Positions 60,071 to 63,876 of a stretch of DNA of 64,000 nucleotides are shown here, piece by piece (positions within the stretch are counted from its first letter, which is position 1; each line of letters begins with the position of its first letter). The notes under the pieces are model-generated. The model was not told the origin of the DNA and ran no database searches. It worked only from the letters and a program-made list of their open reading frames with translations. The stretch comes from Phycisphaerales bacterium (GTDB lineage: Bacteria > Planctomycetota > Phycisphaerae > Phycisphaerales > SM1A02): assembly GCA_029260575.1 (NCBI GenBank), contig JAJDDB010000027.1:560501-624500 (forward strand). Reading direction: 5' to 3'. The translations under genes were made by a program, and so were the position numbers.

Positions 60071-60280
60071 ACTTCTGCAAGCCGCCAAGGCGCTTCTTTG
60101 CGCCGCCAAGAGGCGTATTCCCTGCGCGCAGTAACTTCTGCCTTCCACGAAGAGACGTCTTCGCGCCGCAAAGACGCTTCTTCGCGCCAGCAAGATGCTT
60201 CTTCCTGCTACCAAGACGCGTCTTCCCCGCGCGCAGAAGCGTCTTCCCGCTATAAAGAAACTTCTTCCCGGCGCCAATGC
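60071..60280. repeat. array A: ten degenerate 21-bp tandem repeats
   Basis: Ten consecutive 21-bp units, with starts at 60071, 60092, 60113 and so on to 60260. The consensus is close to GCG TCT TCC CGC CGC CAA GAC, with A/G-C-T/G-TCTTC best conserved. As 21 is a multiple of three, frames stay open on both strands and encode seven-residue repeats such as A-S-S-R-R-Q-D (plus) or L-x-G-A-K-K-x (minus). There are no spacers. The array starts 46 bp after the stop of the membrane gene at 60024. No start codon and ribosome site convincingly open a frame through it. Confidence 0.85.
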
Positions 60281-60378
60281 GCTTTGTTCTCGGTCGCAGT
60301 ACCGACAGCTCGCCGTGGACGCGATTCTTCCCGGACTGTCGAACATTCTGTTGTATTGACTGGTGGAAGCGCCCGGCC

Positions 60379-60756
60379 TCAATACCCGCGAAGCCGCTGC
60401 ACCCTGCGCTTGTGTCGAGCACGCTTCTTCGCAACAGTGTTGCGAGATTCAAGATCGAGGTTGATCAGCTGCACCCGTGTAATGTCGGGATGGCCCTTCA
60501 TGGCGGTAATGATCTCACGAGCAGCATCCACCGCAGCATTGCGAGCTAACGTCTTGGCCTCGACGTTGGGCGCTGTGTTCGAATCCGGCGAACTGGCGAT
60601 GAAGTACGCTTCGTCAAACGCCTACGCACATTCTGTCAATTCATCGCACTGCGTTGCAGCAAACCATCGGCCGGCGGCACATGGCACTTCACCACTGAAA
60701 TCGCCGCGCACGGACAGCCATGCCGCTTTCAGATGCGGAAACGAGGATTTGTCCGT
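60379..60756 (-). pseudogene. degraded coding segment between the two repeat arrays
   Basis: On the minus strand a frame ending at TGA 60379-60381 has strong coding character: A-Y-F-I-A-S-S-P-D-S-N-T, T-L-A-R-N-A-A-V-D-A-A-R-E-I-I, a basic end K-K-R-A-R-H-K-R-R-V-Q-R-L-R-G-Y, and many GNC/GNG codons. It is cut by TAG at 60622-60624. The same frame continues upstream with coding-like sequence (R-W-F-A-A-T-Q-C-D-E-L-T-E-C-A) to another stop, TGA 60757-60759. No suitable start codon exists after the TAG. I do not recognise the family. A disabled gene remnant is the simplest reading. Confidence 0.5.
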
Positions 60757-60828
60757 TCATTTACGGACAGATGGAAGTGCAGTTTTGTGTTCGCGATGCG
60801 CGGTCACTGTCCGGAAATGTCACTCCCG

Positions 60829-61038
60829 GAAAGTTTCATTTGCGCTATTGAAAGTTTCATTTGCGCTCCGGAAGTCTTCAGGAGCGCTCCGGAGACTCTC
60901 ATTTGCGCTCCGGAAAGTCTCCGGCCCACTCCGGAAGTTTTCCGGAGCGCTCCGCAAAGTTTGAAGACCGCTCCGGAGACTTTCAGGAGCGCTCCGGAGA
61001 ACACGCGGACGTCTCCGCAAGTCTTCAGGACGTCTCCG
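60829..61038. repeat. array B: ten degenerate 21-bp tandem repeats
   Basis: Ten 21-bp units starting at 60829, then every 21 bp to 61018, with a partial unit after. Consensus is near GAAAGTTTCAGGAGCGCTCCG; the end G/A-C-T-C-C-G is best conserved, so TCCGGA recurs at unit borders and GGAGCGCTCC (a palindrome) lies in three units. All reading frames through it are heptad repeats, for example P-E-S-F-I-C-A (plus) and L-R-S-A-P-E-S (minus). The sequence differs from array A although unit length and copy number are the same. Confidence 0.85.
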
Positions 61039-61252
61039 GAAAGCACGAGGAAGTGGCAGGACACCTACGCTAGGCGTTTTCAAAATCCCGCTTTACACAT
61101 TGATTCGCCAAATCGGTGCAGCGATTAGCCCAGCAGCCACATATGCGCCCCGGCATCATCAGTAGGCATGCACGCTAACTCTTGGATTTGAACTTGGCCA
61201 TGATGAAGGCGTTATCGGTTGCAGCGCTGGCTGTGGTTTGAAATTCGACGAG

Positions 61253-63373
61253 TCAATCGTTCTTCGGCAATTCATCGGAATCGGGCAGACTGTCAATCCA
61301 GCCCTGCAACTTCTCCACTTCGTGAGAAAGACCAAGCTGTTCGTACAGATCACATGACTTGGCCCACATCTTCCTAGCCTCCCCGACCTGATGTCGAAGT
61401 TCAAAGAGCGAGCCGAGATTGCCATATTGGCTTGCAGACAAATGGAGCATGCCGTTTTTTTTGCTAATCTCTAGTGATTTGCGGCACATCGCTTCTGCTC
61501 CGTCGATATTGCCGCGGGATTTCATAATGCCTACAAGATTGCCGTAGACAGTGGCCATTCCTTCAAGCCGTCCAAGCTTCTCGTTGATCTCCAGTGCCTT
61601 TCGGTACATTGCCTCGGCATTGTCAAAATCATCACGCTTCTGCATGACGTTACCGATGTTTGCATAGTTTGTAGCCATACCGAGAAGACTACCGACCTTC
61701 TCATTGATCTCCAGCGCCTTTCTATGCATTGTTTCGGCTGCATCTAGATCGTCGCGTTTTCCAATAGCGATTCCGAGGTTACCATAGGCAGTGGCTATAC
61801 CTTCCTGCCAGCCCCGCTTCTCATTAATCTTCAACGACTTGCGGTACATTGCTTCGGCACCGTCGTTATCACCACGGGTCAGCATGACATTGCCAAGATT
61901 GCCGTACGCGCTACCGATGGACGCAAGACGTCCCAGGTTTTCGTATATCCCCAATGCCTTTCGGTGCATCGCTTCGGCGCCATCGAGATTACCGAGGGTT
62001 TGCAAAACGATGCCGAGGCTGTCGTAGTTGGCGGCCGCATTTTCGAGTCTGCCAAGTTTCTCGTTAATTTCCAGCGACTTTCGGTGCATCTTTCCGGCAC
62101 CCACCAAATCACCTCGGATTGTCAAGATGGTACCGAGATTGCCGTATACTTCCGCCATTCCTTCGAGCCGGTCGAGTTTCTGGTGGATTTCCAGCGCCTT
62201 GCGGTGCATCGCTTCGGCGCCATCAAGATCTCCACGGGTTTGCATGACGATGCCAAGGTTGACTTGATCGGCGGCCACTCCTTCGAGTCTGCCAAGCTTC
62301 TCGTCGATGTCCAACGCCCGTCGGTGCATCGTTTCGGCACCATCGAGATCACCTCGGTTCATCAAGAAGATACCTAGGTTGCCGTATGCGTCGGCCACGT
62401 GTTCTAGTCGGCCAAGTTTCTCTTCGATCACCAATGACTTGCGAAGCAATTCCTCGGCTGCATCGACATCACCGCGTGTTTCTTGAAGTGCGCCTTGATA
62501 ACGATAGACATCAGCCAACGACTCCGTGTCACCCATTTCAGTTGCGATGCGCTCTGCTTCATTGAACATAACACTTGCTTGGTCAAGCCTCCCTTCACGT
62601 CGAAGAAAATTCCCGTATTGAACGAATGAACGAGGGGTTACTCTTCGCAGAATTGCAGAAGCAAATTTTGCTTCTGCCTCAACCAGGTTCCCCTCATCAG
62701 ATAAGCGTTCTGCTTCATCGATGATATCTGTTGCATCATGCTCTCTTTCATAAGTCGGAGCTGCAAGTGTGCCATCGGAGGTTCTAGGAAGAAGGGGCCC
62801 ACCTCCAGAAGGTGGAGGTTTGTGATCGTCATCTCTATTCTCAAGTTCCTTGAACCATTTCCACAACTGCTGCTGCACATACTTTCCAAATTCTTCCGCA
62901 GTATCGAATGCTCCGTAATACAACGAACGATCGTCTTGAAGTTGCAGTTTGAACTGCAAGACTTTGCTTAGCTGTTCACCCGGATCTGATATTTGTCTTG
63001 GCTCAACGCCCTTGAAAAACACAACGATATCTCTCATCGGAGCGTCCGAATCAGCGATTTCATCAGTAGCAATACTAAATTCTTCTTCGGTTCCCGATGT
63101 GTAGTTGCCACCACTATCTGGCGGCGTGCCCCAGCGGTCCCAAAGCATGAGAATCATGAAGTCACACTTTTTAACATCAACGTTAATTAGGCTCTGCGGA
63201 CGTCCCTTACCAGGAAGCGTGTCTTCCCAACCGATTGGATAAAAGGCGATGCCCTGATCTAAGCAAACCATGTCGTTCCACTCGCTCAAAGTCTCCCGGA
63301 ACACTTTGCGCTCGCTTTCAAGCCCACTAGGTGACGCGATGAATACACGGTATATGCGCACGTTCTCGGGCAT
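61253..63373 (-). CDS. DUF4062 domain protein with ten 40-residue TPR repeats
   Basis: 706 residues. The N-terminal ~100 residues match DUF4062 (R-I-Y-R-V-F-I-A-S-P-S-G-L-E-S-E-R, then P-I-G-W-E-D-T and M-I-L-M-L-W-D-R-W-G-T-P-P), a TIR-like domain found in front of NTPase or repeat sensors. No NTPase domain is present here. After a Pro-rich linker (~185-205) and two degenerate repeats, ten TPRs of exactly 40 residues (~286-685) follow the pattern Y-G-N-L-G-x-x-x-x-x-R-G-D-L-D-G-A-E-A-M-H-R-K-A-L. An AAGGA ribosome site and TATATT promoter hexamer are upstream. It may be a protein- or stress-sensing signalling protein, possibly defence-related (inference). Confidence 0.88.
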   Translation of the reverse strand: MPENVRIYRVFIASPSGLESERKVFRETLSEWNDMVCLDQGIAFYPIGWEDTLPGKGRPQSLINVDVKKCDFMILMLWDRWGTPPDSGGNYTSGTEEEFSIATDEIADSDAPMRDIVVFFKGVEPRQISDPGEQLSKVLQFKLQLQDDRSLYYGAFDTAEEFGKYVQQQLWKWFKELENRDDDHKPPPSGGGPLLPRTSDGTLAAPTYEREHDATDIIDEAERLSDEGNLVEAEAKFASAILRRVTPRSFVQYGNFLRREGRLDQASVMFNEAERIATEMGDTESLADVYRYQGALQETRGDVDAAEELLRKSLVIEEKLGRLEHVADAYGNLGIFLMNRGDLDGAETMHRRALDIDEKLGRLEGVAADQVNLGIVMQTRGDLDGAEAMHRKALEIHQKLDRLEGMAEVYGNLGTILTIRGDLVGAGKMHRKSLEINEKLGRLENAAANYDSLGIVLQTLGNLDGAEAMHRKALGIYENLGRLASIGSAYGNLGNVMLTRGDNDGAEAMYRKSLKINEKRGWQEGIATAYGNLGIAIGKRDDLDAAETMHRKALEINEKVGSLLGMATNYANIGNVMQKRDDFDNAEAMYRKALEINEKLGRLEGMATVYGNLVGIMKSRGNIDGAEAMCRKSLEISKKNGMLHLSASQYGNLGSLFELRHQVGEARKMWAKSCDLYEQLGLSHEVEKLQGWIDSLPDSDELPKND
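61319..62518 (-). repeat. ten 120-bp coding tandem repeats (TPR units)
   Basis: Each unit encodes one 40-residue TPR. Blocks such as those for D-L-D-G-A-E-A-M-H-R-K-A-L and E-I-N-E-K-L-G-R-L-E-G recur almost unchanged at the DNA level, which suggests recent unit duplication and makes copy-number variation likely. Confidence 0.75.
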
Positions 63374-63429
63374 CCTGAGTCCTTGTTGCTAGATGCCAAT
63401 ATACAGAAGCATCCAAGGAATAATCGAGA

Positions 63430-63735
63430 TCACTTCTCCCCTTCCATCTCCATCCACGCTTGCCATGCTTTGACGACGAGGGCGGCTCGGGAGTGGACGT
63501 GGAGCTTGGTTCGCATGCGGTCGAGCTGTTCGGTGATGCACGATGGCTTCACGTGCAGCGATCGGGCCAGACGCGGTGCGGTAAGGTCCTGAGCCACAAT
63601 CAATTGCAGGATTTCTGCCTGTTGGGCTGACAAGCGCATGTGCCGGCCGAGGGTGAGCCAGTTGATGGCGCACGATGGCTGCGATGCAGATACGGCGGCG
63701 ACAGATGCGAAGCTGCTGTGTGAGCCACGGCACAA
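63430..63735 (-). CDS. LuxR-type helix-turn-helix protein
   Basis: 101 residues. The C-terminal ~60 residues form a GerE/LuxR HTH: L-S-A-Q-Q-A-E-I-L-Q-L-I, then A-R-S-L-H-V-K-P-S-C-I-T-E-Q-L-D-R-M-R-T-K-L-H-V-H-S. No receiver or ligand domain is present; the ~40 residues before it are of unknown fold. It would bind DNA alone or with a partner. The TTG at 63735 is uncertain because GGAGG is only 2-3 nt away; ATG 63639 would leave just the HTH. It is directly upstream of the DUF4062-TPR gene on the same strand (56 bp), so it may control or accompany it. Confidence 0.75.
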   Translation of the reverse strand: MCRGSHSSFASVAAVSASQPSCAINWLTLGRHMRLSAQQAEILQLIVAQDLTAPRLARSLHVKPSCITEQLDRMRTKLHVHSRAALVVKAWQAWMEMEGEK

Positions 63736-63876
63736 GCCCTCCCACAGATGAGGAGACTCAGCCTCTGTCTTCTTTCGCTGATGCGCTGTTTATTGGCCGG
63801 GTGCTGTGACTTGCTGCATCGCCGGTATGGCGAGTGTCACTCGTGCTGGATTGCGAATGTGTTGTGACTGTCGCGA

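What the first reader, a model, noticed from the sequence alone, without database searches (positions are those of the whole stretch)
61253..63735. DUF4062-TPR protein beside a lone LuxR HTH: possible sensor unit
Seen: a TIR-like DUF4062 domain joined directly to ten near-regular 40-residue TPRs without the NTPase domain that usually sits between. A stand-alone HTH gene lies 56 bp upstream on the same strand, and repeat arrays lie just downstream. Known: DUF4062 occurs at the N-terminus of STAND-type proteins linked to signalling and, in some cases, phage defence. Inference: a minimal sensor whose repeat number can vary. This is the best candidate here for an undescribed system, but function is unproven.
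Basis: partly seen in the sequence, partly recalled or inferred. Interest (0 to 1): 0.6.

Follow-up and report, generated by a model that had tools for sequence, protein, structure and literature searches.

The report
TIR-like enzyme with TPR sensor arm
This bacterial gene joins a DUF4062 domain, a TIR-like domain type recently shown to destroy the cell's NAD+ during phage attack, directly to a long protein-binding repeat arm, so it is probably a one-gene anti-phage suicide switch; the DNA-binding gene beside it is probably not its dedicated partner.

Summary
Window 61253-63373(-) encodes an intact 706-aa protein: DUF4062 (residues 9-102 by Pfam, about 1-180 structurally), a disordered linker, then ten regular 40-residue TPRs plus two irregular ones, with no NTPase. 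A predicted model of residues 1-184 is a five-stranded TIR-like fold, and the Glu that corresponds to the catalytic Glu of the DUF4062 NADase KpSwz ("Swarozyc", PMC13174449) is kept (E98). A 58%-identical relative with two fewer TPRs sits in an acidobacterial MAG. Looser DUF4062-TPR proteins occur in Alphaproteobacteria, Binatota and on a Rhodococcus plasmid. The domain is rare (14/392 genomes of the phylum) and this gene has the lowest G+C of 48 ORFs, so it was probably acquired. Best reading: a single-protein NAD+-depleting abortive-infection effector with a TPR sensor, a variant of a known kind; activity is untested. Instead the HTH is a six-copy, apparently genus-specific family; at 5 of 6 copies a clear 20-21-bp tandem array (weaker at the sixth) lies on its 3' side, and at four copies accessory genes sit between HTH and array. 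That platform is a single-genome, post hoc lead.

The parts
61253..63373 (-). DUF4062-TPR protein, 706 aa
62834..63373 (-). TIR-like DUF4062 domain (residues 1-180), putative NAD+ hydrolase
   Evidence: Pfam PF13271; AF2 model pLDDT 86; structural matches to TIR domains and DNPH1, Z 10.5-12.3
63080..63082 (-). codon of E98, the putative catalytic glutamate in S-G-T-E-E-E98-F
   Evidence: E98 kept in every relative whose alignment is unambiguous there; aligns to the KpSwz position that is Ala in PDB 10wc_A, read here as the paper's E97A mutation
62738..62833 (-). linker, residues 181-212, predicted disordered
   Evidence: pLDDT below 50
61289..62734 (-). TPR superhelix, residues 214-695: 2 irregular and 10 regular 40-residue repeats plus cap helix
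   Evidence: Foldseek matches to LGN and OGT TPR arrays
63430..63735 (-). lone GerE/LuxR-type HTH ORF (start uncertain), 56 bp upstream of the DUF4062 gene; probably not a dedicated partner
60826..61051 (.). 21-bp degenerate tandem array downstream of the DUF4062-TPR gene
   Evidence: HTH-array association
60150..60284 (.). second 21-bp (42-bp) degenerate tandem array

Best explanation
A horizontally acquired, single-gene, NTPase-free sensor-effector. The C-terminal TPR superhelix binds a peptide or protein cue, most likely from a phage; binding clusters or realigns the N-terminal TIR-like DUF4062 domains, which then hydrolyse NAD+ with E98 as catalytic residue, so that the infected cell stops growing or dies before phage is released. 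Shown here: domain order, predicted TIR-like fold, conservation of the catalytic-type Glu, absence of an NTPase, patchy distribution and outlying composition. Inferred: NADase activity, TPR as sensor, oligomerisation, and the antiphage role (by analogy with KpSwz Swarozyc).
For: Pfam DUF4062 and PADLOC PDC-S60 (N-terminal part only) on residues 5-181. AF2 model of residues 1-184 (pLDDT 86, pTM 0.83): five strands alternating with helices, alpha-C starting at G94-E98; best structural matches DNPH1 (Z 12.3), RPPT-TIR (12.2), AbTir TIR (11.9), TIR-STING and SPARTA TIR. E98 conserved across relatives and aligned to the mutated catalytic position of KpSwz. Literature: DUF4062 hydrolyses NAD+; KpSwz gives abortive infection triggered by phage portal; DUF4062 genes are patchy and often beside defence genes. 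Here: 1 DUF4062 in the genome, 2/181 in the family, 14/392 in the phylum; gene GC 50.5% against 57.0 +/- 2.1, lowest of 48 ORFs; 58%-identical homologue in an Acidobacteriota MAG. DUF4062 joined to TPRs in Alphaproteobacteria, Binatota and Actinomycetota, and in another planctomycete as a DUF4062 gene followed by a separate TPR gene. Some relatives neighbour defence-type genes: a type II methyltransferase with a probable C-protein and endonuclease in L021.
Against: No activity data. The locus is not in a recognisable defence island: 10 neighbouring proteins (transporters, pheA, nuo genes and others) have no PADLOC hit, and most TPR relatives also sit among housekeeping genes. Three of four human DUF4062 proteins tested were inactive on NAD+ (NWD1, NWD2, NPHP3; PMC13174449), so fold plus Glu does not guarantee activity. 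Sequence similarity to KpSwz itself is near noise (E 0.88-1.3). Relatives were not found in phage records or viral contigs.
Confidence: 0.58

Rival explanations
1. The DUF4062 domain is an enzyme or pseudo-enzyme used in ordinary signalling: it makes a nucleotide-derived messenger or acts as a scaffold with the TPRs, without a role against phages.
For: Solo genes among housekeeping genes at this locus and in most relatives; inactive DUF4062 proteins exist (NPHP3, NWD1, NWD2); TPR arrays are general peptide-binding scaffolds.
Against: Patchy distribution and outlying composition fit accessory rather than core function; the catalytic Glu is invariant in the TPR branch.
Confidence: 0.27
2. Two-gene unit: the lone LuxR-type HTH regulates or works with the DUF4062-TPR protein.
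For: Same strand, 56-bp gap, no terminator-like site on that strand between them and no promoter-like site found; HTH copies elsewhere in the genome also adjoin accessory genes.
Against: HTH absent from the held flanks of every DUF4062 relative; five other HTH copies without DUF4062; the HTH has host-like GC (61%) while the DUF4062 gene does not, so the two have different histories.
Confidence: 0.08
3. A neutral, recently acquired passenger gene with no retained function.
For: Low GC, single copy, no relatives in the genus or family except one partial hit.
Against: Intact 706-codon frame, ribosome-binding motif, conserved C-terminal cap with L018 and intact active-site motif.
Confidence: 0.07

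Closest known systems
Swarozyc (KpSwz, DUF4062 + AUX domain; PMC13174449)
   Same: N-terminal DUF4062 TIR-like domain with the catalytic-type Glu, no NTPase, single gene, patchy distribution
   Different: C-terminal half is a TPR superhelix, not the winged-HTH AUX domain that binds the phage portal; sequence similarity of the DUF4062 domains is very weak; activity untested
Human NPHP3 (DUF4062-NACHT-TPR) and TEP1
   Same: DUF4062 at a comparable position; the TPR region matches the Pfam model TPR_NPHP3 (1.6e-23, though below that model's cut-off)
   Different: no NACHT ATPase here; NPHP3 showed no NADase activity, TEP1 did
PADLOC PDC-S60 (phage defence candidate, 906-aa model)
   Same: residues 5-181 match model positions 2-174 (E 2e-18)
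   Different: the remaining ~730 model positions are not matched; the C-terminal part here is TPR
Bacterial TIR effectors (AbTir, TIR-STING, SPARTA TIR-APAZ)
   Same: same fold class, structural Z 10-12
   Different: DUF4062 is a separate sequence family; activating module differs

Membership tests
DUF4062 (PF13271) | Pfam profile match over the curated cut-off | tested here: met
   33.7 bits vs 24.7, profile positions 1-82; 37.9 bits genome-wide
TIR-like NADases | five-stranded TIR-like alpha/beta fold | tested here: met
   predicted model, pLDDT 86; TIR domains among the top structural matches, Z 10.5-12.2; DNPH1-type N-glycosidases score the same and Rab GTPases only slightly lower
TIR-like NADases | catalytic glutamate at the start of alpha-C | tested here: met
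   E98 at alpha-C 94-107, kept in relatives; aligns to the KpSwz position that is Ala in the deposited construct, inferred to be E97A
TIR-like NADases | NAD+ hydrolysis | not testable with these tools
   needs an enzyme assay
Swarozyc defence system | C-terminal AUX domain (winged HTH) that binds the phage portal | tested here: not met
   residues 214-695 are TPRs by Pfam and predicted structure
Swarozyc defence system | location beside known defence genes (frequent, not universal) | tested here: not met
   no PADLOC hit among 10 neighbouring proteins
Swarozyc defence system | phage-triggered NAD+ loss and abortive infection | not testable with these tools
   needs phage challenge
STAND NTPase receptors (DUF4062-NACHT-repeat) | P-loop NTPase between effector and repeats | tested here: not met
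   no Walker A motif, no NACHT/NB-ARC hit
PDC-S60 | match along the whole 906-position model | tested here: not met
   only positions 2-174 match
LuxR/GerE HTH regulators (P0002) | GerE profile match | tested here: met
   27.9 bits vs 23.5; no receiver or ligand-binding domain in the ORF

The most novel reading that the evidence does not exclude
In this genome the lone GerE HTH plus a 20-21-bp tandem array forms a repeated platform (six copies) in which accessory, partly defence-like genes are parked between the HTH's 3' end and the array: DUF4062-TPR here; an XRE gene plus an unknown; a 378-aa unknown; TIGR04255 + unknown + an MBL protein resembling LmuA/PDC-M48B; and two copies without cargo. 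It could be a recombination or capture hotspot, or a regulator with an array of operators (21 bp is two DNA turns), for exchangeable defence cargo.
Probability: 0.2. Interest if true: 0.75.

Novelty: new variant of a known kind. Interest (0 to 1): 0.45.

Why it matters
DUF4062 links bacterial antiphage enzymes with human TEP1, NPHP3 and NWD1/2. An NTPase-free version with a long TPR arm would show a different way of sensing and triggering the same NADase, gives a compact protein for asking how TPR binding activates a TIR-like domain, and extends the family into a poorly explored planctomycete lineage. If the HTH-array platform is real, it offers a new way to locate accessory and defence genes in these genomes.

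Tried and rejected
Viral contigs and phage records hold no detectable relative of the N-terminal domain. Sequence search of the PDB with residues 1-194 found nothing; profile searches reached KpSwz only at noise level and a second profile did not reach it at all. Foldseek alone ranked Rossmann-like flavodoxin and Rab folds first with poor superposition; the re-alignment gave TIR and DNPH1 but also Rab GTPases at Z about 10, so fold alone is not decisive. No direct-repeat target duplication around the DUF4062 gene was found. No tRNA, Rfam family or promoter-like site near the gene. The HTH family searched as a profile in 181 genomes of the family gave only weak GerE matches elsewhere, without a clear 21-bp array within about 1.5 kb. 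'HTH = DUF4062 partner' was rejected. A plain Walker-A test and GC comparison replaced a phylogeny, which was not built. An RN-4-H (HEPN-like) motif seen by eye in the 378-aa neighbour of the L010 HTH has no family support.

Full report
Observation. The reported gene is real: window 61253-63373 on the minus strand, 706 codons without a stop, ATG preceded by AAGGA. Pfam gives DUF4062 over its cut-off on residues 9-102 and many TPR models on the rest. The full-length model has a TIR-like domain, a disordered linker (181-212) and twelve TPR helix pairs plus a cap; ten pairs are regular 40-residue units. No P-loop is present. The lone HTH ORF ends 56 bp upstream and the 21-bp arrays begin about 200 bp downstream.

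What the N-terminal domain is. A model of residues 1-184 built on 13 relatives has mean pLDDT 86 and five strands alternating with helices. Among 999 chains re-aligned, the best are DNPH1 (Z 12.3), RPPT-TIR (12.2), AbTir (11.9), RPS4/RRS1 TIRs, TIR-STING and SPARTA TIRs; Rab GTPases follow at about 10, so this is a TIR/N-glycosidase-type fold, best supported together with the sequence family. A bioRxiv paper of May 2026 (PMC13174449) shows that DUF4062 is a family of TIR-like NADases: K. pneumoniae KpSwz (Swarozyc) depletes NAD+ when its winged-HTH AUX domain binds a phage portal, needs E97, and causes abortive infection; human TEP1 is active, while NWD1, NWD2 and NPHP3 were not. The deposited KpSwz chain 10wc_A aligns without gaps in this stretch (...SFTEKAFDYA against ...SGTEEEFSIA), which puts its Ala under our E98. 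Since the paper's cryo-EM construct carries E97A, I infer that E98 is the catalytic position. E98 is kept in every relative whose alignment is unambiguous there, whereas E96 is not and E97 is missing in one Nostoc protein. The reading of the Ala as E97A is an inference, not a database statement.

Relatives. One genome-contig scan with an N-terminal alignment returned 15 loci. L018, a Vicinamibacteraceae MAG, is 58% identical over 602 aa, has the same order of parts and the same C-terminal cap, and carries eight regular repeats instead of ten: repeat number does vary between relatives. DUF4062 fused to other TPRs occurs in L019-L024 and L026 (Alphaproteobacteria and Binatota) and on a Rhodococcus plasmid. 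In the planctomycete contig L025/L049 a 195-aa DUF4062 gene is followed about 140 bp later by a separate gene with the same type of TPR, at a contig end, so a broken gene or assembly error is possible. NTPase-bearing relatives exist too (L051, L054, L056). The domain is rare: once in the own genome, 2 of 181 genomes in the family, 14 of 392 in the phylum, and not found in phage records or viral contigs.

Acquisition and context. The gene's GC is 50.5% against 57.0 +/- 2.1 for 48 ORFs of the window (lowest of all), GC3 52.3 against 63.5 +/- 4.5. It sits between a pheA/membrane-protein region and the nuo operon; ten neighbouring proteins have no PADLOC hit. Relatives mostly sit among housekeeping genes too, with exceptions: L021 has a type II methyltransferase, a probable endonuclease and a C-protein about 1 kb upstream, and the plasmid L013 has weak PDC-S09/S10 hits beside it.

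The HTH. P0002 scores as GerE but has no receiver or ligand domain. The genome holds five paralogues (84% to about 22% identical) and none of the other 180 genomes of the family has a match at 1e-6. No P0002 relative lies in the held flanks of any DUF4062 relative, so the pairing is local. Looking at all six copies, a pattern appeared: on the 3' side of the HTH there is a tandem array of 20-21-bp period at every copy: window 60150-61051, L009, L010, L057 (20 bp), L058, and a weaker one in L059. In four copies accessory genes lie between HTH and array: DUF4062-TPR; XRE + unknown (GC 45%); a 378-aa unknown (51%); and TIGR04255 + unknown + an MBL protein matching LmuA, RTasMBL and PDC-M48B models weakly to moderately. 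In L058 the array begins 95 bp after the HTH. In 859 kb of the same genome away from these loci, seven arrays reach the strength that five of the six HTH loci reach; for six one-sided windows of 3 kb that predicts about 0.15, against five seen. The association was found after the fact in a single genome, arrays differ in sequence between loci, and cargo points either way. I therefore report it as a lead, not as part of the DUF4062 function. Long GerE genes in the same genome do not show such arrays within 1.5 kb.

Mechanism. Most likely the TPR arm binds a cue and brings TIR-like domains together, turning on NAD+ hydrolysis and stopping the infected cell. Domain order, predicted fold, conserved Glu, lack of an NTPase and accessory-type distribution are shown here; enzymatic activity, the cue, oligomerisation and the antiphage role are inferred from KpSwz. 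What it works like is Swarozyc; whether it is a Swarozyc fails on one tested defining feature, the AUX domain. The main rival is a non-defence signalling role or an inactive TIR-like domain.

Verdict. It is a new variant (TPR-armed, NTPase-free) of a very recently described kind, with a separate unexplained HTH-array association worth following.

Noticed in passing
window 60150-63735; L009 6722-8769; L010 5140-7068; L057 3182-6614; L058 5846-6366; L059 6806-7290: All six copies of the lone GerE HTH have a 20-21-bp tandem array on their 3' side (weak in L059), four with accessory genes in between; about 0.15 strong arrays expected by sampling against five seen.
   Followed up: partly
L057 3732-6264: Three-gene low-GC cassette: TIGR04255 family protein, an unknown, and an MBL-fold protein matching LmuA/RTasMBL/PDC-M48B models, convergent with an HTH copy; possible defence module.
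   Followed up: partly
L010 5633-6769: 378-aa protein without family hits, carrying an RN-4-H stretch that resembles a HEPN motif by eye, directly downstream of an HTH copy.
   Followed up: partly
L009 8567-8815 and window 63491-63738: The two closest HTH copies are 92% identical over 249 bp with sharp ends; the L009 copy has lost its 3' end where a GC-45% XRE + unknown gene pair abuts it.
   Followed up: yes
window 63877 onwards (L008 8877-9467): A small acidic probable lipoprotein with a PepSY-like stretch (by eye; no Pfam hit) ending in a poly-Asp tail sits upstream of the HTH; the tail corresponds to the GTCATC-rich repeat near the window's end.
   Followed up: no
L049 8834-9884: In another planctomycete a DUF4062-only gene is followed by a separate gene with the same type of TPR; contig ends inside it.
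   Followed up: partly
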